Of a stretch of DNA of 64,000 nucleotides, positions 48,361-62,560 are shown in pieces (position 1 is the first letter of the stretch; the number at the start of each line of letters is the position of its first letter). The position numbers were made by a program, and so were the translations under genes. Origin of the DNA: Brasilonema sp. CT11 (GTDB taxonomy: Bacteria > Cyanobacteriota > Cyanobacteriia > Cyanobacteriales > Nostocaceae); contig NZ_JABXYX010000012.1 of the NCBI RefSeq assembly GCF_017982655.1, positions 1-64,000 on the forward strand, in the 5' to 3' direction. Below the pieces are notes generated by a model. That model ran no database searches and had not been told where the DNA came from. It saw nothing but the letters and a program-made list of their open reading frames with translations.

Positions 48361-50928
48361 ATGAAAGACGAGGAAAAGACAAAAGAGCAGTTGATTGAAG
48401 AGTTAACTGCGCTACGCCAAAACCTTTCTCAGTTAGAACAAGTAGCAGCACAACAACAGGAGGTTCAAGAAGCTCTGCGACAGCAACGCGAATCCTCTCG
48501 ACGCCAAGTTCAAAAAGAGCAGGCTTTGAATCGAGTGATTCAAAGTATCCGTAATTCTCTGGATTTAAAAACCATTTTTTCCACAGCGGCTTATGAGATT
48601 ACTCAGCTTGTGAGCGCTGATCGAGTTGAAATTGTGCAATATATACCTGAACGGCAACTGTGGCTGAATGTCGCTGATTATCATCAAACTCCAGATTTAC
48701 CAAGTGCTTTGGGGCTGGAAATTCCCGATGCTGATAATGAAATTGCTGCCCGACTCAAGCGATTAGAAGTTGTTCAAATTGAAGATGCGAGTGCTTGTTC
48801 AGATGAAATTAACCGCAGTTTAGCCCAAACTTATCGCGGTGCATGGTTGCTGGTACCAGTGCACTTTGGCTCTACTGTTTGGGGTAGTCTTAGCCTGATT
48901 AGAAATAATCACTCTTTATCTTGGCAGCAGGAGGAAGTGGAGTTGACTTGTGCTGTGGCTGATCAACTGGCGATCGCCATTCACCAATCCACTCTCTTAT
49001 TACAGGTACAAACCGAACTTGCTGAACGTAAGCAGGTAAAAGCTGCTTTGCAAGAAAAGCAGTATTTTATTCAACGAATTGTTGAAACAAGCCCCGATAT
49101 CATCTATGTCTACGACTTAGTTGAACAGCGCAACATTTATATAAACAGACAAATGCTTGAGATTCTTGGCTACGCTTTCCAAGAAATTCAAGCCATGAGA
49201 GAAACAGTCTTGCCGAATCTCGTTCATCCAGATGACATAGTACGAGTAACAGAACATCTCAAAGGTTTTGAAACTGTTAAGGATGGTGAAGTTCTCGAAA
49301 TAGAGTACCGGATGAAAGATGTCAATTGTGAGTGGCGTTGGTTGCGTAGTCGAGAGACTGTGTTTGCGAAAAATGCAGAGGGGTTGTGTGTACAAATTTT
49401 GGGTGTAGCAAGTGATATTACTGAGCGTAAACAAGCGGAACACAAAATCCGCGAACAAGCGGCTTGGCTTGATGTTGCCACAGATGCCATTATAGTGAGA
49501 GATTTAGAAAACAAAATAGTCTTCTGGAACAAAAGCGCTGAACGACTTTACGGTTGGAAAGCAAAAGATGTTTTGAGTAAAAATGCTAATGATATCTTGT
49601 ACAAAAGAGCATCTTTGCAACTTCAGCAGGCTTTGTCTCAAGTTAACTTAACAGGCGAGTGGTATGGAGAATTAAGCCAGATACGAAAAGATGGTAAAGA
49701 AGTTCTTGTAGAAACTCGCTGGACACTGGTGCGCGATGAACACGGTAACCCAAAATCAATCTTAATTGTAAACACCGACATTACAGAAAAGAAAAAACTT
49801 CAGACACAGTTTCTTCGCGCTCAAAGATTGGAAAGCCTTGGTACGCTTGCGAGCGGTATTGCTCACGATCTTAATAATACAATAGCTCCTATGCTGATGT
49901 CCGCCCAGCTTTTGCGGATGAGAATTTCCGATGAGCGCAACCAGCAGATCCTCCAGACATTAGAAACAAACGCTCAACGTGGTGCAGCTATGGTTAAGCA
50001 AGTGCTATCGTTTGCACGCGGTGTCGAAGGTAAGCGCACAATTTTACAAATCAGGCATTTGATATCGGAAATTGAGCAGTTTGCTAAACAGACATTTCCC
50101 AAATCTATCGAATTTTGTACTGAAATCGTACCAAATCTTTGGACTATTTCTGGAGATGCGACACAACTGCATCAGGTACTAATGAACCTAGTTATTAACG
50201 CTCGGGATGCGATGCCAAAAGGCGGAGTTTTGAGTATTTATGCTGAAAATTTCTTTATTGACGAAAACTATGCTCGCACGAATCTTGATGCAACTGTTGG
50301 ATTCCACATTGTCATCACCATTAAAGATACTGGAATTGGTATGCCACCAGAAGTATTGGATAGAATTTTTGAGCCTTTCTTTACAACAAAAGAGGTTGGA
50401 AAAGGTTCAGGACTAGGTCTTTCAACTGTGCTTGGTATTATGAAAAGCCATAACGGTTTTATCAGTGTTTCTAGTAAAGTTGGGAAAGGAACACAATTTC
50501 AAGTCTTCTTAAAAGCAGTTTTAGAAAACCAAACACTGCCACAAGAATCTTTGGAATTGCCTATGGGAAATGGAGAATTAATTTTAGTTGTAGATGATGA
50601 AGCTGAAATTCGAGAGATTACCAAAATCACGCTAGAGAATTACAACTATAAAGTATTAACCGCTTGTGATGGCATTGAAGCACTTGCATTATATGCTCAA
50701 AATCCAGAACACATTAAAGTCGTATTTGTAGATATGATGATGCCAGATATGGATGGTTTAACCACCATCCGTGCTTTGCTAAAAATGAATCCATGCATCA
50801 AGATTATGGCTGCAAGTGGAATTACAGACAATCAAAAATTGACGCAATCTCTTGGTGTTGAAACATTTTTGTCTAAGCCTTACAATATTAAAAACTTGTT
50901 ACAAGTACTGCAAAAAATTCTAAACTAA
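48361..50928 (+). CDS. Hybrid sensor histidine kinase (GAF-PAS2-HisKA-HATPase-REC)
   Basis: This 855-aa soluble protein has an N-terminal coiled coil (KTKEQLIEELTALRQNLSQL), a GAF domain (about 60-215), two PAS/PAC domains ending DITERKQAE and DITEKKKLQ, and a HisKA with His502 in SGIAHDLNN. HATPase boxes are NLVINARDAMP, DTGIGMP and GSGLGLSTV, and the receiver has Asp791 in FVDMMMPDMDG. The HDLNN-type H-box places it in the NtrB-like/HPK4 group. Its stop overlaps the convergent menF gene by 9 bases. Confidence 0.92.
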   Translation: MKDEEKTKEQLIEELTALRQNLSQLEQVAAQQQEVQEALRQQRESSRRQVQKEQALNRVIQSIRNSLDLKTIFSTAAYEITQLVSADRVEIVQYIPERQLWLNVADYHQTPDLPSALGLEIPDADNEIAARLKRLEVVQIEDASACSDEINRSLAQTYRGAWLLVPVHFGSTVWGSLSLIRNNHSLSWQQEEVELTCAVADQLAIAIHQSTLLLQVQTELAERKQVKAALQEKQYFIQRIVETSPDIIYVYDLVEQRNIYINRQMLEILGYAFQEIQAMRETVLPNLVHPDDIVRVTEHLKGFETVKDGEVLEIEYRMKDVNCEWRWLRSRETVFAKNAEGLCVQILGVASDITERKQAEHKIREQAAWLDVATDAIIVRDLENKIVFWNKSAERLYGWKAKDVLSKNANDILYKRASLQLQQALSQVNLTGEWYGELSQIRKDGKEVLVETRWTLVRDEHGNPKSILIVNTDITEKKKLQTQFLRAQRLESLGTLASGIAHDLNNTIAPMLMSAQLLRMRISDERNQQILQTLETNAQRGAAMVKQVLSFARGVEGKRTILQIRHLISEIEQFAKQTFPKSIEFCTEIVPNLWTISGDATQLHQVLMNLVINARDAMPKGGVLSIYAENFFIDENYARTNLDATVGFHIVITIKDTGIGMPPEVLDRIFEPFFTTKEVGKGSGLGLSTVLGIMKSHNGFISVSSKVGKGTQFQVFLKAVLENQTLPQESLELPMGNGELILVVDDEAEIREITKITLENYNYKVLTACDGIEALALYAQNPEHIKVVFVDMMMPDMDGLTTIRALLKMNPCIKIMAASGITDNQKLTQSLGVETFLSKPYNIKNLLQVLQKILN

Positions 50929-52335
50929 TGCCTTTAGCAACGCTTGCAGTTTGAGTTGAACTTCTGCCAGTTCTTTGTCAGGATCGGAACCATCAACGAT
51001 ACCAACGCCTGCGTAAAGTCTGGCGCGATCGCCATCTATAAGTGCTGAACGAATTCCAACAATAAACTCACAGTTTCCCTCCAAGTCTACCCATCCGAGT
51101 GGTGCAGCGTACAAACCTCTTTCAAAGCGCTCAAAACGACGAATTTCGCGACAAGCAACTTCCTGAGAAGTACCTCCAACGGCTGGTGTAGGATGTAGTT
51201 GAGCAACTATCTTTAAAGGATGTACATCAGCTGGAACTAACGCGCTGATGGGTGTCCACAAGTGCTGAATATTAGATAATTGTCGCAAGCGGGGTGCTAA
51301 GACTTGAGGTAGTAAACCCAGTTTAGAAAGACGTTGAGTGATAAAATCAATCACTAACGAATGTTCGTGTCTTTCTTTGTAACTATTGAGCAAACGACTC
51401 GCATGAGCAGCATCTTCACCAGGTGTTTTCCCTCGTGGCGCAGAACCAGCCAAAGCATCAGTCATTAACTGTTGTTCCTGGATGCTAATTAAACGTTCCG
51501 GACTTGCCCCGATAAAATTTTGTCCTTTGCCATTACTGTGAGAAAACACATAACAATTAGGATGCAACTGTCTCAGGTTATTTAAAGATTTTATGACATT
51601 CAAATGACCATTTGACCTAACATCTAGTATATCCGCCAAGACAACTTTAGTTAAATCCTTGGACTCGATTTTTTCCAAAGCTGACAAAACTGAAGACTTG
51701 AAATTTTGAGGATTTGCAATAGATTGATTACTAAATTTAGGCAAAGAGTAATCAAGAGTTTGTGAGTTGGATTGTAAAGAATTGATAATTTCTAATTTTC
51801 TCGATAAACTTTGCAATATTCTTTTAATATTTGTGTCATTATCGATAATTGCATTCATCACCAACACACAATGCTGATTTTTCACAGCTACTTGCCAACG
51901 TGGTAGAAATATGGTAGCAGCAGAAAATGGATAATCTGGTTGGGTATTTTGATCAAAAAAACTAAAACTACATAAAAATCGAGTTTCAAAAAAAGCTTGA
52001 TTCGTTCTAGAAAAGCTAGTTATATTTTGAACACACTTTTTGATGAATTCTTCTGATTTGATAAAACGGTCTTTTCCTGCAACTTCTATTTTCGCAACAG
52101 CATCAACAGCAGCCAGGGCTTCCTTTTTGCCTCGATTCTCCCAATAAAAACTAACTTTATTTGGTTGTGCTAATTTATCAAGTACAACCAAGGGGTCAAC
52201 CCAATCAATATCTAGCGCAAAGCTTGCAATTTGCGTGTCATTATTCTTAATGCAGTTTTGTTGAACAGCTAAAAGAAAACGGTATAGTTCCTTATTATAA
52301 ACAAAAGAGTCAGCATTACATGAAGAAACTGTCAT
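50920..52335 (-). CDS. menF: Isochorismate synthase
   Basis: This 471-aa chorismate-utilising enzyme has the C-terminal catalytic signature PTPAVGGTSQEVACREIRR, the Mg-binding GDRARLYAGVGIVDGSDP with ELAEVQLK, and FIGASPERLISI. It converts chorismate to isochorismate, the first step of phylloquinone synthesis. It is divergent from menC-menE, with a shared intergenic region at 52336-52452, which supports the MenF assignment over salicylate or siderophore pathways. Confidence 0.93.
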   Translation of the reverse strand: MTVSSCNADSFVYNKELYRFLLAVQQNCIKNNDTQIASFALDIDWVDPLVVLDKLAQPNKVSFYWENRGKKEALAAVDAVAKIEVAGKDRFIKSEEFIKKCVQNITSFSRTNQAFFETRFLCSFSFFDQNTQPDYPFSAATIFLPRWQVAVKNQHCVLVMNAIIDNDTNIKRILQSLSRKLEIINSLQSNSQTLDYSLPKFSNQSIANPQNFKSSVLSALEKIESKDLTKVVLADILDVRSNGHLNVIKSLNNLRQLHPNCYVFSHSNGKGQNFIGASPERLISIQEQQLMTDALAGSAPRGKTPGEDAAHASRLLNSYKERHEHSLVIDFITQRLSKLGLLPQVLAPRLRQLSNIQHLWTPISALVPADVHPLKIVAQLHPTPAVGGTSQEVACREIRRFERFERGLYAAPLGWVDLEGNCEFIVGIRSALIDGDRARLYAGVGIVDGSDPDKELAEVQLKLQALLKALV

Positions 52336-52452
52336 GGATCTAGAAAGAGTAAATTTTTTTAAAGTTAACTTCCAAAAGAGTGATATTTCGTGGTCGTATT
52401 TTTACAAGTAACACAAAACAGTTACCTTTTTACCTGCACTGACAAGCTTCTC

Positions 52453-53562
52453 ATGGGGTATCGATTTGAGTTTCGTTCTTATCAGCAAAAATTTGCAACT
52501 TCCCTCATGACAAGTCATGGTAGTTGGGATATCCGCGAAGGAATTATTCTTCGTCTCACCGATGAAACAGGAAAAATCGGCTGGGGGGAAATTGCACCCA
52601 TCAGTTGGTTTGGTTCAGAAACTCATGAACTTGCTTTGGAATTTTGCCGTCAGCTTCCAGAGGAAATCACACAAGAGACGATTTTCTCTATTCCTGACGA
52701 GTTACCCTCGTGTCAATTTGGATTTGAGTCTGCTTGGGAAACGATTAGCACCCTTACCCTCTCAGGAATTAATTTCGACAGCTATAGCCCAAGTCTATTA
52801 AAATGGACTGCAAACCTTTCCCAGTCGTCTTTAGATGACTTGGACTATGAGCCTCGGGTTTTAAACTCTAAGCGGTTGTTGGGATTGGTACAAGATCTCA
52901 GAAAAATTGAGACATTAAGCTATAGCGCTTTACTACCAGCTGGGGAAGCGGCGCTAGAGGCGTGGCAAAAGCTGTGGAAGGAGGGATATCGTACTTTTAA
53001 ATGGAAAATTGGTGTCTATGCCATTGCTCAGGAACTAGAAATTTTTAAATTACTTTGTCAAACTTTACCAGCTTCTGCAAAACTACGATTAGATGCCAAC
53101 GGCGGACTTAGCTATGAACAAGCTCAGTTATGGCTCGGAAATTGCGATAATATCAAGGCAAATGAAGAAATTTTCCCAAAAATTGAATTTATTGAGCAGC
53201 CTTTATCTGTGGATCAATTTGCGGCGATGTTGGAGTTGAGTCATTGTTACCAGACGGCGATCGCCTTAGATGAATCTGTCGCCACACTCAACCAACTCAC
53301 CACATGCTTCCAACAAGGTTGGCGAGAAATTTTTGTGATTAAGCCTGGGATAGTCGGTTCACCATCCCGTCTGCGTCAGTTTTGTCAACAGCATAAAATC
53401 GATGCTGTGTTTTCATCCGTGTTTGAAACTGTAATTGGTAGACAAGCCGCACTCCAAATAGCAGCGCAATTATCTCAAAATAACAGAGCAGTGGGTTTTG
53501 GTGTCAACCATTGGTTTGCTCAAAAGGAGACAACGCCCGAAGAATTATGGAAAAAACTCTAG
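52453..53562 (+). CDS. menC: o-Succinylbenzoate synthase
   Basis: This 369-aa enolase-superfamily enzyme dehydrates SHCHC to o-succinylbenzoate. It has the N-terminal capping domain MGYRFEFRSYQQKF and SWDIREGIILRLTDETGKIG, the catalytic KWKIG lysine, metal ligands in RLDANGGLSY, FIEQPLS and ALDES, and the second Lys in VIKPGIVGSP. The ATG at 52453 fits the family start. It overlaps menE by 16 bases. Confidence 0.93.
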   Translation: MGYRFEFRSYQQKFATSLMTSHGSWDIREGIILRLTDETGKIGWGEIAPISWFGSETHELALEFCRQLPEEITQETIFSIPDELPSCQFGFESAWETISTLTLSGINFDSYSPSLLKWTANLSQSSLDDLDYEPRVLNSKRLLGLVQDLRKIETLSYSALLPAGEAALEAWQKLWKEGYRTFKWKIGVYAIAQELEIFKLLCQTLPASAKLRLDANGGLSYEQAQLWLGNCDNIKANEEIFPKIEFIEQPLSVDQFAAMLELSHCYQTAIALDESVATLNQLTTCFQQGWREIFVIKPGIVGSPSRLRQFCQQHKIDAVFSSVFETVIGRQAALQIAAQLSQNNRAVGFGVNHWFAQKETTPEELWKKL

Positions 53563-54962
53563 AAAATTTTATTCAGAATGCATCTTGCCAGCCTCTCTCC
53601 AATGACTGGCTCATTTGTCATGATAGCCATTTATTCGCTCAATTAACCCAACAACTTTATTTAGAATTAACCCAGTTTTCATACTATCGAGGCACACCAA
53701 TCAAAATTCTTTTAGCCGAACGTGAACCAGTGCGGTTTTTAGCAGGTTTTCTCGCGGCTTGTGCCGCTCGTTGTCCAGTTTTTCTTTGTAACCCCGACTG
53801 GACAAAACAAGAATGGCAACAAGTTTTTGATTTAGTAAACCCAGATTTAATTTGGGGATTAGGGACTAAGAATTGGGGACAAGACTATTCCAAATTAAAA
53901 AATCCGATCATTCCATCTCCTGATTCAGGACTGATCATGATTCCCACAGGTGGCTCATCAGGAGAGATTAAGTTTGCCATTCACACCTGGCAGACTTTAA
54001 TCGCATCCGTGCGAGGATTTACAGAACATTTTTTGATTAATCAGGTTAATTCTTTTTGTGTCTTACCGCTCTATCACGTCAGCGGGTTAATGCAATTTAT
54101 GCGCTCCCTTACGACTGGTGGAAAACTCGTTATTCGGTCATTCAAAGAAGTAGAATACAGTCAAGTAAACAGTATAGAATCATCCAAATTCTTTATTTCT
54201 TTAGTACCAACACAGTTACAGCGTCTGCTACAAAAACCAGAATTAACTCAGTGGTTATCTCAATTTCAAACTGTACTATTAGGAGGTGGAGCAGCATGGA
54301 ATGAACTTTTGGAAAAAGCAAGATATTACAACATTCGCTTATCTCCCACCTATGGTATGACGGAAACTGCCTCCCAAATTGCCACCCTCAAACCAGATGA
54401 ATTTCTTAATGATAAAGATAACTGTACTCAAATTCTCCCCCATGCCTCTATCAAAATTCGCAATCAGCAAGGCGAGGAATTGAATTCAAATCAAATCGGA
54501 AACATCACAATCTATTCTCAAGCTCTCGCCTTAGGATACTATCCTAACACTTGGGAGAATCAGGCTTATTTACAAGTGGATGATTTGGGTTTCTTAGATA
54601 ACAAAGGTTATTTACATATCGTCGGACGTAACAGCGACAAAATTATTACAGGCGGTGAAAATGTCTATCCAATAGAAGTTGAATCTACCATTAGAGCTAC
54701 AGAAATGGTAGTAGATATTTGTGTCATAGGCATACCAGATAAACTCTGGGGACAAGCAGTCACAGCAATTTACATCCCCAAAGACTCAAATACCTCTGAC
54801 AGAAAAATCATAAATTTGCTCAAAGATAAACTCAGCAAATTTAAAATTCCTAAAAATTGGATTCCTGTACAAACCTTACCTCGTAACTCCCAAGGTAAAA
54901 TTAATCGCCAACAGTTACAGCAAATAGCCACAAAATTTATTCAAAGTAGCCTAGCTGATTAA
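53547..54962 (+). CDS. menE: o-Succinylbenzoate-CoA ligase
   Basis: This 471-aa acyl-adenylating enzyme has P-loop IPTGGSSGEIKFAIHTW, the aromatic motif PTYGMTETASQIATL and the C-terminal hinge/lysine RNSDKIITGGENVYP and NSQGKINRQ. It activates o-succinylbenzoate with CoA. The ATG at 53547 lies inside the end of menC, implying translational coupling. Confidence 0.93.
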   Translation: MEKTLENFIQNASCQPLSNDWLICHDSHLFAQLTQQLYLELTQFSYYRGTPIKILLAEREPVRFLAGFLAACAARCPVFLCNPDWTKQEWQQVFDLVNPDLIWGLGTKNWGQDYSKLKNPIIPSPDSGLIMIPTGGSSGEIKFAIHTWQTLIASVRGFTEHFLINQVNSFCVLPLYHVSGLMQFMRSLTTGGKLVIRSFKEVEYSQVNSIESSKFFISLVPTQLQRLLQKPELTQWLSQFQTVLLGGGAAWNELLEKARYYNIRLSPTYGMTETASQIATLKPDEFLNDKDNCTQILPHASIKIRNQQGEELNSNQIGNITIYSQALALGYYPNTWENQAYLQVDDLGFLDNKGYLHIVGRNSDKIITGGENVYPIEVESTIRATEMVVDICVIGIPDKLWGQAVTAIYIPKDSNTSDRKIINLLKDKLSKFKIPKNWIPVQTLPRNSQGKINRQQLQQIATKFIQSSLAD

Positions 54963-54975
54963 AGAGAAAAATTGC

Positions 54976-55045
54976 AGCATCCCATGCGTGTGAAAGTAGT
55001 GCGAGCCGGAAAGCTGGCTAGTCATTGTACTGCATTTGGGATGCT
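54976..55045. mobile_element. Short MITE-like repeat (AGCATCCCA ends)
   Basis: AGCATCCCA (54976-54984) and TGGGATGCT (55037-55045) are inverted ends, each continuing as in the 45593-45718 element (GCGTG, and CCCGATAAA after the right end). The rest of 55046-55230 is repeat-like (cacccctacaccc) and non-coding. Confidence 0.65.
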
Positions 55046-55230
55046 CCCGATAAACATTACAAAGGCTGCCAATTTTTTAGGGGACAATGCGTCACCATTA
55101 ATCTTTGTATCAAGCTCAAACCGCCACGCAATGCTTACGCGGCGCTGCGCGATTTTATTGATGGGAACCCCTACACCCCTACACCCTTACACCCTTACAC
55201 CCTGCCCGTAGGGCATTGACTCTTGACTTT

Positions 55231-55677
55231 TCAAACAACCTCTCTTGACTTTCTTCTCTCTGCGCTCTCTGCGCCTCTCTTGTTCATTTCCAACCATTCC
55301 CTCATATTTTCTGGTAACTCTGTTTTCGTTCTGCTACTTGTCTCAATACAAACGTGCCTAGTCACTGCCTTACCAGCGATCACCTCACCAACTATCACCT
55401 CATAAGCCACTTCAAATCTGTCAATACTAAGCTGTTGAGGCATTAGCCTAATAACCAAATTGTCTCCACAATATAGTGGACGAAAAAAATCCACATTAGC
55501 ATGAACAATCGGAAAAGCTACAGAAGGATTCGTAAAAAAATCTTTGAGATTAATGCCAGATACAATTAGAGACTCCTCATAAGCCTCATGACAAATACTC
55601 AAGAGATTAGCAAAGTAAACTACCCCAGCAGCATCAGTGTCTTGAAAGCGAATGGTGCGGTTATATATAAAGGCCAT
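55231..55677 (-). CDS. 1,4-Dihydroxy-2-naphthoyl-CoA hydrolase (hotdog thioesterase)
   Basis: This 148-aa 4HBT-type hotdog protein has the catalytic-Asp motif [17 protein letters not shown] and the [11 protein letters not shown] core. Cyanobacterial members (as slr0204 of Synechocystis) release DHNA from DHNA-CoA in phylloquinone synthesis, and the position beside menC-menE supports that role. The last 15 or so residues ([15 protein letters not shown]) are encoded by a simple ctctgcg-type repeat and are probably not functional. Confidence 0.88.
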
Positions 55678-55757
55678 AATTCAAGCCAAAGTTCAAAAAT
55701 AGATAGCAAACAAATAGCCTGCTACAGTAAACAATTTTACCGCAATCATTTGGTTTA

Positions 55758-56846
55758 TCAGTTCAAGGGGTAATAAATATCCTCAGAGCAAGGATTGAGG
55801 TAAGGACGCTGTAAATCAATACCAAGCCGAGTAAAATGTGAGTCAATAGCCTTCATCCGCTGATCAGTTGAATCGTTATCTTGTTGCCAAACTTCCAACA
55901 AAGCATTCGCTACGATTTGACAGCGGTTCATCCCAAAACTTTCCTGTGCAGCAAATTTTTGGCTAAGTTCTTCAGCTAAACTCAACCCAGGTGCTAAAAA
56001 CTTGGTAAACAAGGGGATTTCTGTGTGGAAATGAGATTGATGTTCTGCATAGACACTTCTTAGGACTTTTCGCACTGCTGGATAGTCTTCACGTTCAAAG
56101 GATAGCACTCCTGAATCATAGCGCCCATAAGCAGCGCGATTGTGTAACACCTGAAAACTAAAAGGAATTGCAGCAGCGTTCAATTGTTGTGTCAGGCTAT
56201 CCATAAGCGCTAAGGCACCCATTGGAGTAACATTAAAGTAAATTCGCCCTGCTCCCAAATCAGTATCCGGTTTAGTCTGCAAATCCTGTCCGACATTGCT
56301 AAGCGCTATGTAAAAGCCGTTTTGTAGTCGATTTTTAGGCATCCATATATTTATCAAATCTCCTACCTTGGCAGTTGGCGTTGACGGTTCTAGATTGTGA
56401 TTGTACTCAACATACAACGTCAAACCACCTTTGCTCACTGCAATACTACCATCTGGTTCCCGTCGCAACAATTGCCAATCAGGATCAAAGTAGCCTATCC
56501 CATGATTACTGGTATGTAGTAACTCGTAAAATTGCCAATCCATCTCTAAGCTAGAATAGCTTTCCAAGTTTTTATGTGGCAAATCATGAGCGACATCACT
56601 ACTGAGTGACAACGTGGTTTGCAGAGAACCATTGTAATAAATACCGTGAACAAAATTCCGCAATAGTAGAGCAAGATACTTGTGTTGTAATGCTGGCGAA
56701 TTTTGTCGAAATCGCTCTGCTATTTTAGATGGTAGGGCAAAGGGTTGATATTTTGGATGGCGAATGCAAAAGTTGGATTGAATTTCGATATTGCTAGCAA
56801 TATCCAATAGAGAATTTAGCAGTGGTTTGGTAGAAGACTCTAGCAT
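55758..56846 (-). CDS. HopA1-family protein (putative RiPP lyase, LxmY/TvaD-like)
   Basis: This 362-aa protein matches the T3SS-effector HopA1 family: VGDLINIWMPKNRLQNGFYI, DLGAGRIYFNVTPMGALAL and FQVLHNRAAYGRYDSGVLSF are the conserved blocks. In class V lanthipeptide (LxmY) and thioamitide (TvaD) clusters, a HopA1-like protein removes phosphate from phospho-Ser/Thr to give dehydroamino acids, after phosphorylation by an APH-fold kinase. The gene directly upstream here (57011-58249, same strand) encodes such a kinase. That role is inference; the substrate is unknown. Confidence 0.82.
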   Translation of the reverse strand: MLESSTKPLLNSLLDIASNIEIQSNFCIRHPKYQPFALPSKIAERFRQNSPALQHKYLALLLRNFVHGIYYNGSLQTTLSLSSDVAHDLPHKNLESYSSLEMDWQFYELLHTSNHGIGYFDPDWQLLRREPDGSIAVSKGGLTLYVEYNHNLEPSTPTAKVGDLINIWMPKNRLQNGFYIALSNVGQDLQTKPDTDLGAGRIYFNVTPMGALALMDSLTQQLNAAAIPFSFQVLHNRAAYGRYDSGVLSFEREDYPAVRKVLRSVYAEHQSHFHTEIPLFTKFLAPGLSLAEELSQKFAAQESFGMNRCQIVANALLEVWQQDNDSTDQRMKAIDSHFTRLGIDLQRPYLNPCSEDIYYPLN

Positions 56847-56873
56847 GAGTGTAATTTCAAAAAGAAGAATTAA

Positions 56874-57012
56874 CAGTTATCAGTTATCAGTTACCAGTTA
56901 CCAGTTATCAGTTACCAGTTACCAGTTATCAGTTACAACAGAAAATACGGATCTGTTTCTTTTGTTTACTGTTTACTGTTCACTGTTCACTGATTTCGCT
57001 GTTCACTGTTTT
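56874..57012. repeat. Heptanucleotide repeats (CAGTTAY)n and (TGTTCAC)n
   Basis: Nine CAGTTAT/CAGTTAC units run from 56874 to 56936. A second, degenerate TGTTTAC/TGTTCAC array follows at about 56964-57012. They fill the gap between the HopA1-like and kinase genes. Confidence 0.95.
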
Positions 57013-58249
57013 AACAACCGCGCAGACGAGTTTTGTTATAATAAAGACGAAGCAAATTCTTCTTTGTTTTGGGATAATGAAGTTGAACAAATTTTGCAAA
57101 TAGCTTTAGGATTTCTGACTCTGTGATCCCAAAAACAGTCAATACAGACTCTTGTGGTCTACTGAGTAAGCTTTGAGCAAATTTGAACATACAAATACTG
57201 GAGTTATCAAAGTATTTGTGAAAGTTTATTTTTTCCTTGATTCGATGAAGTAGAACTAAACCCGCAAATTGGATAACTCGTTGAACAAATTCACAACGAT
57301 ACTCAAGAATCACTGGAAAAGTATCAAGATAAGCTAGAATAAGAGTTAGTAGTGAAGGTTGGATAACTTCCAATGGAATCGCTGCCAGAAGTAATGACTC
57401 TTCTAACTCAAGAGTAGGATCTACCACTAGACTTTCTAACCAAAGTGTTAAGTAGCTTGCCACTAAAGTTCCCAAATCAAAAGCTGGATCTCCCCAGGAA
57501 CAAGCTTCCCAATCAATGAGTCGTATAAGACAGTTGTCTAACTTCTCCCACCTTGAATGCACTAAAACATTTTCCAATTTCAGATCATTATGAGTTAAGC
57601 AGCAAGGATTCCATTCATACGCCAATTCTGCAATTGCTGCTTCTAAACTCTCATAACGTTGATAAAGAGCGTAGAATTCCAGCGCCTCTGTAGGAACATC
57701 GCCAAAAATTTCCGGTCCAATTGACCCTATCCCTTGCGTTGGATTATAAAATTGATAGCGAAACTGTCCTTCAGGAGCAGTTGCCATAAAATCACGATAC
57801 TCCGGGCGGTTGAAAGTGGCACGATGTAGTGATCCCAAACTAGTACCAATAGCGCTTGCGATCGCTTTTGGAAAATATAAATTTTTTTGATAAAAACTTG
57901 CTAGTTCAAAATACTCCTTGAGGTAGTGACGAACAAGAATAGATTTTTCTTGCTCAAAATGCACTACCAAAGATGCCGCAGCAGAAATATTTCCTAACAC
58001 TGGAAACTGCTGAAGTAGTTGATGAAACAACCACTCATTCCAAAACTCATGTGGATTTTCGTTATTATCAACACATCGTTCTTGCTTAACCAGTAGCTTT
58101 TGATTCCCAGGCAGAGTAACTAGTAAATTGAAATTTTTTTGACTCGTTTGCGGGAGTTCAGAATAGGAATTTGTACCTTCTTCTGAGCTACACAGACCTG
58201 CTTGATGCAGATAATGAATAACATTATGAGAAGACAGTGAAAGTACCAT
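57011..58249 (-). CDS. APH-fold phosphotransferase (LxmK/TvaC-like)
   Basis: This 412-aa protein has the aminoglycoside-phosphotransferase/kinase fold: LLVTLPGNQKLLVKQE in the N-lobe (Lys), catalytic loop CCLTHNDLKLENVLV with Asp and Asn, and metal motif LIDWEACSWGDPAFDLGTL. It is immediately upstream of the HopA1-like gene. In class V lanthipeptide and thioamitide pathways this pair phosphorylates and eliminates Ser/Thr side chains. A housekeeping small-molecule kinase is an alternative. Confidence 0.85.
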   Translation of the reverse strand: MVLSLSSHNVIHYLHQAGLCSSEEGTNSYSELPQTSQKNFNLLVTLPGNQKLLVKQERCVDNNENPHEFWNEWLFHQLLQQFPVLGNISAAASLVVHFEQEKSILVRHYLKEYFELASFYQKNLYFPKAIASAIGTSLGSLHRATFNRPEYRDFMATAPEGQFRYQFYNPTQGIGSIGPEIFGDVPTEALEFYALYQRYESLEAAIAELAYEWNPCCLTHNDLKLENVLVHSRWEKLDNCLIRLIDWEACSWGDPAFDLGTLVASYLTLWLESLVVDPTLELEESLLLAAIPLEVIQPSLLTLILAYLDTFPVILEYRCEFVQRVIQFAGLVLLHRIKEKINFHKYFDNSSICMFKFAQSLLSRPQESVLTVFGITESEILKLFAKFVQLHYPKTKKNLLRLYYNKTRLRGC

Positions 58250-58909
58250 GTCTTATTTCCTAAAGCGTAAAATTGTTCCTGAAACCACAATTTCAGTATT
58301 AGCTTTACTTCAGTGGTCTTCAGTAGATATTTATGACTCGTGCAAATATCAATAACGATTAGCACAATCTACTAATATCCGATTTATCAAAAATAAACCT
58401 GCCAAAATGGCAATGTTGCTTTTGCTATTGCTTTAAATTTTGCTCAGCACTCAGTCAAATCTTTTAAACCAATACACTTGCTGTTAGTGGTGTTTAGTTT
58501 TGTTAAGATCCCCCAACCGACGCCAGGTGCTACAAGTCGGGCAACTCTAGCCGAGCACTGGCTCCCCTTAAAAAGCTTGCTCAGTTCCCTCCTTTTTAAG
58601 GAGGGCTAGGGAGGATCAATCCTTAAGTGAACCGTATTGTCTTTTAAACGACGTTGTAGAATAATTCGCGCTATTATCGCTACTACAAATTACTTAAAAA
58701 TAGAACTCAGAGCTATCTCCTCCACCAGACGCTACGCGTTAGCCGTAAGGCGTGCGCTTTGCGCATACGACAAGGCTCAGCTACCAAATACAGAACGGGC
58801 TGCGCCCTTGCACTCTACAGAAGAAAAGAAAAATTTTCATGTGTCTTGGTGAGGGAGTGAAGGAGGAAAAATATTGTCATCCTTACTGGTGGGCAAATGT
58901 CTATGATGA
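58250..58909. other. Repeat-containing intergenic region upstream of the kinase
   Basis: Searched on both strands for a short precursor-peptide ORF for the kinase/HopA1 pair; none with a ribosome-binding site and Ser/Thr/Cys-rich core was found. The region contains a GGAGCCAGTGC-family repeat (58515-58568), a CCCTCC(TTTTTAA)GGAGGG hairpin (58589-58608) and a short dispersed repeat with gctacgcgttagc and gcgctttgcgc (58730-58785). Confidence 0.5.
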
Positions 58910-59236
58910 CTACTTAAACAGAGAATGGGCGAGTAGAGCTGCTTGGGTGCGATTGCCCAAAGGGCAGACGCAATCATGCGTATCGCGCAAGTTCAAGCGA
59001 CTAAGAATATTAGTCACATAGTTTTTAACAGTATTCTCTGAAAGGAAAAGCGATTGAGCAATTTCACGGTTATTCGCTCCAGAAGCTATCAAACGCAACA
59101 CATCCAATTTTCTGAATGTGAGTTGCGCCAGTTCTGGGAAATATTCAACGGATGAGACTAGTAGTGTCATGGATATAAGTGCTTTTTCTAACAATTCCGG
59201 TTCAAGTTGAGTATGTCCTTTGGCGGTAATTGTCAA
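58910..59236 (-). pseudogene. Truncated NarL-type response regulator (HTH only)
   Basis: The frame corresponds to the C-terminal half of the regulator at 61922-62560: KGHTQLEPELLEKAL, then ELAQLTFRKLDVLRLIASGA and NNREIAQSLFLSENTVKNYV. The receiver domain is entirely missing; homology begins about at AVYKGHTQL. A 30-base in-frame insertion adds THDCVCPLGN between LRD and RTQAALLAHSLF, splitting the last helix region. It is most likely a decaying partial duplicate. Confidence 0.85.
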
Positions 59237-59607
59237 AAGTCTGGAACGACCAAATCCTGTTGAGACACATGATGTATCATTTGTACAGTGCGTAAATCCT
59301 ATATTTTTTTACTGATTTGGTTATGGATACTCGTGACTTTCTTCCCATGTCATGTTGAAAATCACCATTGTATATTGAAATTACCTGAATAAACCTAACT
59401 AAATCTACGTGGTAAAAACACCGTAAAACTGGTGAATAAGACAATCAGATTAAGTAAATATTTTTTCCAAGATTAATTACACGTTGCCGTAAATCAATTG
59501 AGTAGGCGGCTGGCATAAGTATGAGTTGTGTCAATATTTTTCTTGTTCATACAAGTTTACTCACTTTGTGTTCTACCCAACTAAAAATTGCTGTAAATGG
59601 AGAAAAA
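59237..59607. other. Intergenic region upstream of the Spy-like lipoprotein
   Basis: No further homology to the receiver domain was seen on the minus strand. GGAGAAAA directly upstream of the ATG at 59608 is the ribosome-binding site of the next gene. An operator for the neighbouring regulator may lie here but was not identified. Confidence 0.4.
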
Positions 59608-59997
59608 ATGATCAACAAACAGATAATATTACCAACCCTTCTATCTGCAACTATCCTTCTGGGAGGAATCACTGGTTGTTCCGGATCTAAATCATCGGAC
59701 GCAACCAGTCCAGATGGGTCTGGAACTAACGTATCTCAAAACAGCCCATCTACGACAAACAACAATCAAGCGGATACATCGGAACGCGCTCAGAAGCGTG
59801 AAGAGATTCGCAAACAAATTGAAGCCGTTCTAACCGCAGATCAGGTGAAACAGTTGCAAGCAAAACTGCAACAAGGGGAAAAAATGCGTAAAGCAGTGTT
59901 GAGCCTCGATCTCACTGCAGAGCAAAAAACTAAAATTCAGGATATTTTTAAGACTGCTTATCCCCATCGTCAAAGGAAATCTCAAGAGAATTCCTAG
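59608..59997 (+). CDS. Spy/CpxP-like (LTxxQ) lipoprotein
   Basis: This protein of about 129 aa has a lipoprotein signal (LPTLLSATILLGGITGCSG; lipobox ITGC), a disordered Ser/Asn/Thr linker and a helical domain with two LTxxQ-like elements (VLTADQVKQLQAKL and LDLTAEQKTKIQDIF). Spy/CpxP proteins are periplasmic chaperones or stress-system accessory proteins. An S41 protease gene follows about 90 bases downstream, suggesting joint envelope quality control. Start ATG 59608 has a GGAGAAAA site; an upstream frame to 59521 is not protein-like. Confidence 0.78.
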   Translation: MINKQIILPTLLSATILLGGITGCSGSKSSDATSPDGSGTNVSQNSPSTTNNNQADTSERAQKREEIRKQIEAVLTADQVKQLQAKLQQGEKMRKAVLSLDLTAEQKTKIQDIFKTAYPHRQRKSQENS

Positions 59998-60088
59998 TAG
60001 TTTAATCGGGATGTAAATCTGAGTTTCCAGAAGCTTTGCTGCAATTTTCTGTACTGTTGTTTGTGAATTTATTGTTATCAGTGAAAGC

Positions 60089-61921: not shown

Positions 61922-62560
61922 TCAGTTAAATAAAGAATGAGCAAGCAGAGCGGCTTGAGTGCGATCGCGCAAGTTTAAGCGACTGAGAATATTAGTCACA
62001 TAGTTCTTAACAGTGTTCTCTGAGAGGAAAAGCGACTGAGCAATTTCACGGTTATTCGATCCAGAAGCCATTAAACGCAACACATCCAACTCTCTGCGTG
62101 TAAGTTGCGCCAATTCTGGGGGTTGTAAAACTGAAGGGGCTGGCACTGGGGCGGGCGTGAGTGCTTTTTCAAACAATCCTGGTCCGAGTTGGGTATGTCC
62201 TTTGTAGACAGCACGAATCGCTAGCGCCAGTTCATCTGGTTCAGTGTCCTTGAGCAAATAGCCCTTAGCCCCCACTCGCATCGCTTGCGAGACGTACCCA
62301 TCATCATCGAAAGTTGTTAATACTAGTACTTTCGTGTCGGGATATTGTTGAGCGATCGCCCCAGTAGCAGCAACTCCATCCATCACGGGCATTCGGATAT
62401 CCATCAGCACAATGTCCGGTTGTAGGGTAGAAATTTGTTCGATCGCTCGTTGCCCATTTTCCGCCTCACCCACAACTTGCATATCGCAATTGGACTCTAG
62501 CAGACTTTTGAGTCCTTGACGGATGAGAAGTTGATCATCGACTAACAAGATCCGAATCAT
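61922..62560 (-). CDS. NarL/FixJ-type response regulator
   Basis: This 212-aa protein has an N-terminal receiver (RILLVDDQLLIRQGL; phospho-acceptor Asp in PDIVLMDIRMPVMDG; Thr in LVLTTFDDDG; Lys in GYLLKDTEP), a Pro/Ala-rich linker and a LuxR helix-turn-helix (LTRRELDVLRLMASGSNNRE with SENTVKNYVTNIL). The gene is transcribed after the cognate kinase gene 50 bases upstream. A truncated copy of it lies at 58910-59236. Confidence 0.93.
   Translation of the reverse strand: MIRILLVDDQLLIRQGLKSLLESNCDMQVVGEAENGQRAIEQISTLQPDIVLMDIRMPVMDGVAATGAIAQQYPDTKVLVLTTFDDDGYVSQAMRVGAKGYLLKDTEPDELALAIRAVYKGHTQLGPGLFEKALTPAPVPAPSVLQPPELAQLTRRELDVLRLMASGSNNREIAQSLFLSENTVKNYVTNILSRLNLRDRTQAALLAHSLFN

What the first reader, a model, noticed from the sequence alone, without database searches (positions are those of the whole stretch)
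55758..58249. Kinase plus HopA1-like pair: a RiPP dehydratase without a nearby precursor
An APH-fold kinase directly followed by a HopA1-like protein is the enzyme set that makes dehydroamino acids in class V lanthipeptides (LxmK/LxmY) and thioamitides (TvaC/TvaD). No precursor peptide, cyclase or transporter gene was found next to them. They may act in trans on a remote peptide or on a protein, which would be a new use of this chemistry.
Basis: partly seen in the sequence, partly recalled or inferred. Interest (0 to 1): 0.8.

Follow-up and report, generated by a model that had tools for sequence, protein, structure and literature searches.

The report
Lanthipeptide-type kinase pair with dead lyase
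Most sampled genomes of one large cyanobacterial family carry a peptide-less relative of a lanthipeptide-making enzyme pair, in which the kinase looks intact but its partner, wherever it was read, has lost the key catalytic lysine; it may be an unknown phosphate-adding system.

Summary
The pair is real: an APH-fold kinase (57011-58249, -) followed by a HopA1 protein (55758-56846, -), with no leader peptide found in the window. It is not a stray remnant. The HopA1 gene has an orthologue in 85 of 88 sampled relatives of its family, with the kinase beside it in 62 of 63 loci read, often upstream of a hotdog thioesterase near phylloquinone (men) genes. Solo proteins form one group apart from 21 precursor-linked ones and are under purifying selection. 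Leader peptides occur at 0 of 74 solo loci (68 genomes) against 37 of 38 control RiPP-cluster loci. Predicted folds match LxmK/LxmY; the kinase keeps its catalytic residues. The lyase base (CaoY Lys219, essential in PMC9486802) is Lys in 38 of 38 control proteins but in 0 of 69 solo proteins (Gln in 62). So 'dehydratase' is doubtful: most likely this is a lanthipeptide-type kinase with a pseudo-lyase partner, phosphorylating an unlinked substrate. A palindrome upstream of the kinase marks the solo type (53 of 59). Substrate and activity are unknown.

The parts
57011..58249 (-). APH/LxmK-type kinase (solo K), 412 aa; catalytic residues Lys55, Asp222, Asn227, Asp246 present
   Evidence: residues conserved in 72-74 of 74 solo rows; predicted fold matches LxmK 9dk3_A, E 5.7e-12, third after methylthioribose kinases
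55758..56846 (-). HopA1/LanY-like protein (solo Y), 362 aa; Arg201 and Arg242 kept, catalytic Lys replaced by Gln232, Tyr replaced by Ser249
   Evidence: predicted fold matches LxmY 9dk3_B, E 5.2e-17
58400..58413 (-). palindrome TTGCCATTTTGGCA upstream of the kinase, characteristic of the solo type; candidate operator
   Evidence: TGCCN5GGCA within 600 bp in 53 of 59 solo kinases, in control 2 of 40, both solo orthologues
55231..55677 (-). hotdog (4HBT_2) thioesterase next downstream on the same strand; most constant downstream neighbour of the pair; probably the DHNA-CoA thioesterase (inferred from neighbours)
   Evidence: PF13279; downstream on the same strand in 50 of 60 solo loci, gap 300 bp or less in 44, median of the 50 gaps 83 bp
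53511..54962 (+). menE, O-succinylbenzoate-CoA ligase (neighbour)
   Evidence: NF005662, 660.4 bits over cut-off 640; near the pair in 47 of 60 loci
52390..53562 (+). menC, o-succinylbenzoate synthase (neighbour)
   Evidence: NF002739, 481.5 bits over cut-off 259; 46 of 60 loci
50920..52335 (-). isochorismate synthase, menF-like (neighbour)
   Evidence: TIGR00543, 336.5 bits over cut-off 224.75; 40 of 60 loci

Best explanation
The pair is a clade-wide, vertically kept descendant or sister of the class V lanthipeptide dehydratase (LanK-LanY) that stands outside RiPP biosynthesis. It most likely forms the same kinase:HopA1 heterodimer. The kinase phosphorylates a Ser/Thr of a peptide or protein encoded elsewhere. 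The HopA1 partner, which keeps the two arginines of the phosphate/carbonyl pocket but lacks the Lys (and often the Tyr) that takes the alpha proton, serves as stabiliser and phospho-substrate-binding subunit and not as an eliminating lyase, so the product stays phosphorylated. It has its own conserved upstream region with a palindrome (candidate operator) and is often followed by the thioesterase gene. Shown by computation: homology, predicted fold, orthology, absence of a nearby leader peptide, kept kinase residues, loss of the lyase base, purifying selection, upstream palindrome. Inferred: complex formation, kinase activity, lack of lyase activity, and a peptide or protein substrate.
For: Predicted folds match LxmY (E 5.2e-17, TM 0.67/0.76) and LxmK (E 5.7e-12, TM 0.65/0.76). 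Position 232: not Lys in any of 69 distinct solo proteins (Q 62, E 5, H 1, Y 1) nor in the three diverged orthologues L151, L168 and L215, all Q; Lys in 38 of 38 control cluster proteins, in three actinobacterial LanYs with CaoY's R-K-R-Y spacing and in LxmY. CaoY K219A gives only phosphopeptide (PMC9486802 section 6). Kinase K55 74/74, D222 72/74, N227 74/74, D246 72/74 rows. Solo rows form one group, support 99/91. dN/dS 0.085-0.29 for Y and 0.12-0.35 for K over 20 pairs each. HopA1 orthologue in 85 of 88 family genomes; leader 0 of 74 loci.
Against: No activity was measured. Lys loss is not unique to the solo type: the second HopA1 copies of C321 and C348 lack it, and so do 4 of 26 non-solo proteins among the hits (E, E, Q, Y). 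Gln232 is only moderately conserved (39% of solo positions are more conserved), so it may be tolerated and not selected. Arg201 is lost in 7 of 69 and the Tyr position drifts. Two solo kinases have Glu at D222 and two have Asn at D246. An alternative base is not excluded (Lys282 is invariant in 69 of 69, but is also in most cluster proteins). The kinase model's two best fold matches are methylthioribose kinases, small-molecule enzymes. The A1 precursor profile is narrow: a second GG peptide of the same genome scored only E 0.06, and 21 of 24 solo-only genomes carry a PpiC-type protein 51% or more identical to that of C119, so unlinked precursors are possible.
Confidence: 0.5

Rival explanations
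1. It is still a dehydratase: another residue acts as base, and it modifies an unlinked GG-leader peptide, for example the orphan leader peptides of the C119 exporter locus of this genome.
For: C119 holds two GG-leader peptides with PpiC-, HlyD- and C39-ABC-like genes but no HopA1 gene; 6 of 24 solo-only genomes searched have an A1-type leader somewhere; PpiC-type proteins occur in 24 of 24.
Against: Catalytic Lys absent in 69 of 69 distinct solo proteins; K219A abolishes elimination in CaoY; no A1-type leader at E 0.01 or less in 18 of 24 solo-only genomes, and in G022, G042 and G069 of these the best PpiC matches are 27-33% identical.
Confidence: 0.17
2. The kinase phosphorylates a small molecule, perhaps tied to the thioesterase and phylloquinone pathway, with HopA1 as an obligate structural partner.
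For: Thioesterase downstream in 50 of 60 loci, 44 within 300 bp; men genes nearby in most; thioesterase stays with the pair in G025, G073 and G086, where the menE match lies elsewhere; the best fold matches of the kinase model are methylthioribose kinases, with choline kinases further down.
Against: No known phylloquinone step lacks an enzyme (recalled, no call); the pair stands without the thioesterase in 10 of 60 loci, one of them cut short by a contig end; the partner is a HopA1/LanY fold, whose characterised RiPP members act on phosphopeptides.
Confidence: 0.18
3. HopA1 is a negative regulator or sensor that sequesters the kinase or a phosphoprotein; the pair is a signalling switch of this cyanobacterial family, which on the named members is that of heterocyst formers (trait recalled), for example in differentiation.
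For: HopA1 in 87 of 88 family genomes against 11 of 60 of other families; ten of these 11 gave a match to the window protein and none was the thioesterase-linked Gln type (one, L217, has Gln but leader peptides beside it); own upstream palindrome.
Against: The family link may be simple common descent; no expression or phenotype data were found.
Confidence: 0.1
4. The pair is a decaying remnant of a RiPP cluster.
For: Loss of the lyase Lys and drift at the Tyr position.
Against: Purifying selection on both genes, open reading frames, conserved upstream palindrome, orthologue in 85 of 88 genomes.
Confidence: 0.03

Closest known systems
Lexapeptide dehydratase LxmK-LxmY (PDB 9DK1-9DK3), class V lanthipeptides
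   Same: Kinase plus HopA1 gene pair; both predicted folds match; kinase catalytic residues kept
   Different: No leader peptide found nearby and no LanC in the window; lyase Lys replaced by Gln; NCBIfam LxmK cut-off not reached (59.6 against 315)
Cacaoidin CaoK-CaoY (PMC9486802)
   Same: Arg187 and Arg229 equivalents present (Arg201, Arg242)
   Different: Lys219 equivalent is Gln232 and Tyr236 equivalent is Ser249; K219A in CaoY stops elimination and leaves phosphopeptide
Cyanobacterial Family 1A HopA1 clusters (PMC8153245), which C321 and C348 of this genome resemble
   Same: The first pairs of C321 and C348 are 48-53% identical to the window pair
   Different: Control clusters of this type have GG-leader precursors (37 of 38) and R-K-R-Y (38 of 38), many with PpiC, HlyD and C39-ABC; the solo rows form a separate group
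HopA1 type III effector (PDB 4RSX, 4RSW)
   Same: Same fold family
   Different: Here a cyanobacterial gene beside a kinase gene and men genes; secretion was not tested

Membership tests
Class V lanthipeptide dehydratase (LanK/LanY) | APH-fold kinase gene next to a HopA1 (PF17914) gene | tested here: met
   59 of 60 loci
Class V lanthipeptide dehydratase (LanK/LanY) | Fold of LxmK and LxmY | tested here: met
   (predicted models against PDB; LxmK is third for the kinase)
Class V lanthipeptide dehydratase (LanK/LanY) | Kinase catalytic residues | tested here: met
   K55 74/74, D222 72/74, N227 74/74, D246 72/74; the window has all four
Class V lanthipeptide dehydratase (LanK/LanY) | Lyase catalytic Lys (CaoY Lys219) | tested here: not met
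   Window Gln232; 0 of 69 distinct solo proteins have Lys, 38 of 38 control cluster proteins do
Class V lanthipeptide dehydratase (LanK/LanY) | Arg187 and Arg229 pocket | tested here: met
   Arg201 62/69 and Arg242 68/69; the window has both
Class V lanthipeptide dehydratase (LanK/LanY) | Precursor peptide encoded nearby | tested here: not met
   none in the window, 0 of 74 solo loci; the profile covers Family 1A-type leaders only
Class V lanthipeptide dehydratase (LanK/LanY) | NCBIfam LxmK equivalog cut-off | tested here: not met
   59.6 bits against 315; the RiPP-cluster kinases of this genome also fail (44-94 bits)
Class V lanthipeptide dehydratase (LanK/LanY) | Ser/Thr dehydration activity | not testable with these tools
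   Needs expression and mass spectrometry
Thioamitide biosynthesis (TvaC/TvaD type) | YcaO gene near the pair | tested here: not met
   The genome's only YcaO match (PF02624) is on contig C81, not C93; TfuA was not searched

The most novel reading that the evidence does not exclude
A lanthipeptide-type dehydratase was converted once, early in the history of this (heterocyst-forming) cyanobacterial family, into a near-core phosphorylation system: a kinase with a pseudo-lyase partner that phosphorylates a cellular peptide or protein without forming dehydroamino acids, under its own conserved promoter element.
Probability: 0.42. Interest if true: 0.82.

Novelty: new variant of a known kind. Interest (0 to 1): 0.72.

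Why it matters
Co-occurrence of kinase and HopA1 genes has been proposed as a handle for finding class V lanthipeptide clusters (PMC9486802). Here a large family carries one such pair in most sampled genomes with no precursor nearby and a lost lyase base, so the marker alone can mislead. If the pair is a phosphorylation system, it would show how a natural-product enzyme can become a housekeeping or signalling module, and it can be tested directly by knockout and phosphoproteomics in genetically tractable Nostoc/Anabaena.

Tried and rejected
Precursor in the window or next to solo loci: leader profile and clustering of all ORFs of 30 aa or more in 60 loci showed no conserved small gene beside the pair other than a TMEM14 membrane-protein gene (PF03647; 38 loci); the other short families in the 70 listed looked like shadows of larger genes, judged by position only. 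Rfam search of 55000-60000: one sub-threshold chance hit. Known regulator motifs upstream: GTAN8TAC in 18 of 59 against a shuffle mean of 9.0 and maximum of 15, but the stricter form in 3 of 59 against 2.3; not pursued. Using the palindrome to find a regulon: 29 exact sites in 13 genomes against 1 for the reversed control, 9 of them at solo kinases, the others without an obvious shared gene. PDB sequence search with the kinase gave only weak matches. Genome-wide proof that no precursor exists: not reached, because PpiC-type proteins occur in 24 of 24 solo-only genomes searched. Decay as explanation: rejected. Limits: the tree holds 21 precursor-linked HopA1 proteins, chosen by similarity to the window or from this genome, its root is not fixed and the 21 do not form a supported group, so 'descendant' against 'sister' is open; the 40 control loci were picked by me; the leader profile was built from 12 of the 16 cluster loci and two own-genome peptides, so those match by construction, whereas L022-L025 and the 40 controls do not; the palindrome was found in the same 59 loci on which it was counted.

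Full report
Observation. Pfam places both above curated cut-offs. The kinase's best NCBIfam model is LxmK, but at 59.6 bits against a cut-off of 315; the RiPP-cluster kinases of the same genome also stay under it (44-94 bits). The window is part of contig C93 of an 8.79-Mb genome with five HopA1 genes. The nearest named relative is Brasilonema angustatum (99% identical HopA1). The genome's only LanC-like and only YcaO matches are on contig C81.

The same genome has proper clusters. C321 and C348 each carry two kinase/HopA1 pairs with GG-leader peptides between them; C348 also has ThiF-like, luciferase-like, PpiC-like and ABC-exporter genes and a HlyD-like gene (named by eye). These leaders look like the cyanobacterial Family 1A precursors of PMC8153245 (passages and section 16 read); that comparison rests on the paper's description (conserved leader, double glycine), not on its sequences.

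The orphan state is conserved. A similarity search in named genomes gave 30 loci. Fourteen (L008-L021, 66-99% identical) have no leader match better than E 3; the other sixteen (L022-L037, 49-57% identical) all have one, twelve of them by construction, since their peptides built the profile. In the 88 sampled genomes of the same family (56 genera), 87 have some HopA1, against 11 of 60 genomes of other families in the order. An orthologue of the window HopA1 gene is in 85 of 88: 72 by 60% identity or more (one of them, G055, as two adjacent pieces), five at 53-58% with the thioesterase downstream (G035, G050, G056, G080, G087), five at 53-56% beside menE (G015, G028, G054, G066, G075), and three diverged copies with Gln and a thioesterase (G025, G086; G073). 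None was found in G018, G037 and G048. Sequence was read in 63 of the 85 genomes (60, L151 and L168, L215), and the kinase is beside it in 62 of these; for the other 22 genomes neither the kinase nor the residue was looked at. Twenty-six family genomes have a single HopA1; 25 of them have the solo type, G018 has a cluster type. That the family is the heterocyst formers is recalled; it rests on the named members (Fischerella, Nostoc, Scytonema, Tolypothrix and others).

Neighbourhood. In 60 fetched solo loci (one per genome) the kinase is upstream in 59 (L057 ends at a contig end), the thioesterase downstream in 50, menE near in 47, menC in 46, menA in 43, isochorismate synthase in 40, and no leader in any; contig ends make these lower bounds. 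The men genes are above NCBIfam cut-offs; 'DHNA-CoA thioesterase' is inferred from the neighbours and a hotdog-fold match. Further upstream lie a TMEM14 gene (38 loci), a DUF815 ATPase (44), a TerB-C protein (43) and a BrxC/D-type ATPase (39). In G025, G073 and G086 the pair and thioesterase are together while the menE match lies on another contig or over 2 Mb away. In L051, L052, L065 and L105 the pair has none of these upstream neighbours nor the thioesterase, yet it keeps the upstream palindrome.

Control. Forty loci of other HopA1 genes of the same family were fetched, picked by me at lower identity. Thirty-seven have leader peptides. Of the three without, two (L151, L168) carry Gln, kinase and thioesterase and are diverged solo orthologues, dropped from the control; the third (L138) is a plasmid cluster with Lys and exporter genes. 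So 37 of 38.

The lyase residue. PMC9486802 (abstract, passages and section 6 read) shows for CaoY that K219A yields only phosphorylated peptide, R187A nearly abolishes elimination and R229Q weakens it. The spacing R-(32)-K-(10)-R-(7)-Y of CaoY 187/219/229/236 is present in three actinobacterial LanYs next to genes annotated lxmK (L122-L124) and, with 31 for 32, in a Deinococcus and a Tolypothrix protein; the mechanical scan found no such motif in a Pseudonocardia protein. The same K aligns in LxmY. In the window protein these positions are R201, Q232, R242, S249 (numbering of the 362-aa ORF; the model lacks the first residue). Across 69 distinct solo proteins (75 rows less six duplicate genomes): Q232 in 62, E 5, H 1, Y 1, K 0; R201 62; R242 68; Y249 41. 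In 38 control cluster proteins all four are R-K-R-Y. In the 21 cluster proteins of the first set Lys is in 19; the two others are the second HopA1 copies of C321 and C348. Among 27 hits (some repeat control loci) Lys is in 22; those without are G073's solo copy and four others (L216, L217, L224, L225), so Lys loss also happens outside the solo group. Gln232 is at least as conserved as about 60% of solo positions, whereas 249 is more variable than 78%. Gln and Lys codons differ by one base, yet no solo protein read has Lys.

The kinase. Lys55 74/74, Asp222 72/74, Asn227 74/74, Asp246 72/74 rows; exceptions L075 and L090 (Glu222) and L051 and L095 (Asn246). Predicted folds (pLDDT 80 and 82) match LxmK, in third place after two methylthioribose kinases, and LxmY, in first place. 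A review (PMC12141560, passages and section 10 read) reports that LxmY alone aggregates, LxmK alone needs a solubility tag and co-expression stabilises both, which gives a reason to keep a lyase subunit after its activity is lost.

Evolution. In a tree of 100 HopA1 rows the 75 solo rows form one group (99/91). dN/dS is 0.085-0.29 for HopA1 and 0.12-0.35 for the kinase over 20 pairs each. The upstream element TGCCN5GGCA lies within 600 bp of 53 of 59 solo kinases, exactly TGCCATTTTGGCA in 41, and at 154-165 bp before the start in 41 loci; among 40 control kinases only the two solo orthologues have it. In the window it is at 58400-58413.

Could the substrate be a remote precursor? With profile A1, 18 of 24 solo-only genomes have no match at E 0.01 or less (G086, the 25th, was not searched). 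This is limited: the profile is narrow and PpiC-type proteins occur in all 24, at 51% identity or more in 21 and only 27-33% in G022, G042 and G069. In this genome, C119 holds two leader peptides with PpiC-, HlyD- and C39-ABC-like genes but no HopA1 gene, a fair candidate for action in trans.

Conclusion. The pair works most likely as a LanK-type kinase held by a HopA1 pseudo-lyase. It is related to class V dehydratases but fails two tested defining features (lyase Lys, nearby precursor), so it is not filed as one. Print: no paper in the held library joined HopA1 with Nostoc or heterocyst; of ten papers with HopA1 and cyanobacteri nine were listed, and neither the listings nor the parts I read describe this solo type; supplementary data were not open to me.

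Noticed in passing
L006 7680-10415 and L007 7766-9801 (C321, C348): The second kinase/HopA1 pair in each RiPP cluster looks catalytically dead: kinase Asp to Asn/Thr, one kinase ORF lacking much of its N-lobe, HopA1 lacking Lys and Arg201. In L026 the second kinase also has Asn for Asp. A dead pair kept beside a live one may have another role, such as cyclisation.
   Followed up: partly
L118 1483-8038 (C119): Two GG-leader peptides with PpiC-, HlyD- and C39-ABC-like genes but no HopA1 gene; a near-identical PpiC protein (95-96%) lies beside a leader match in G003 and G063.
   Followed up: partly
window 56874-56940: Tandem heptamer-like repeats (TCAGTTACCAGTTA) in the gap between kinase and HopA1 genes (read).
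   Followed up: no
window 58910-59236: LuxR-type HTH fragment (PF00196) resembling by eye the C-terminus of the response regulator at 61922-62560, apparently a truncated duplicate.
   Followed up: no
upstream of solo kinases, e.g. L053 950-5086: Conserved block of BrxC/D-type ATPase, TerB-C protein and DUF815 ATPase, then TMEM14, next to the solo pair in 38-44 of 60 loci.
   Followed up: partly
G018: Single-contig small genome of the same family with neither the solo gene nor a menE match at E 1e-60, while its genus mate G066 has both.
   Followed up: no
L007 10194-10512: A precursor gene of the C348 cluster contains a run of N, so its sequence is incomplete here.
   Followed up: no
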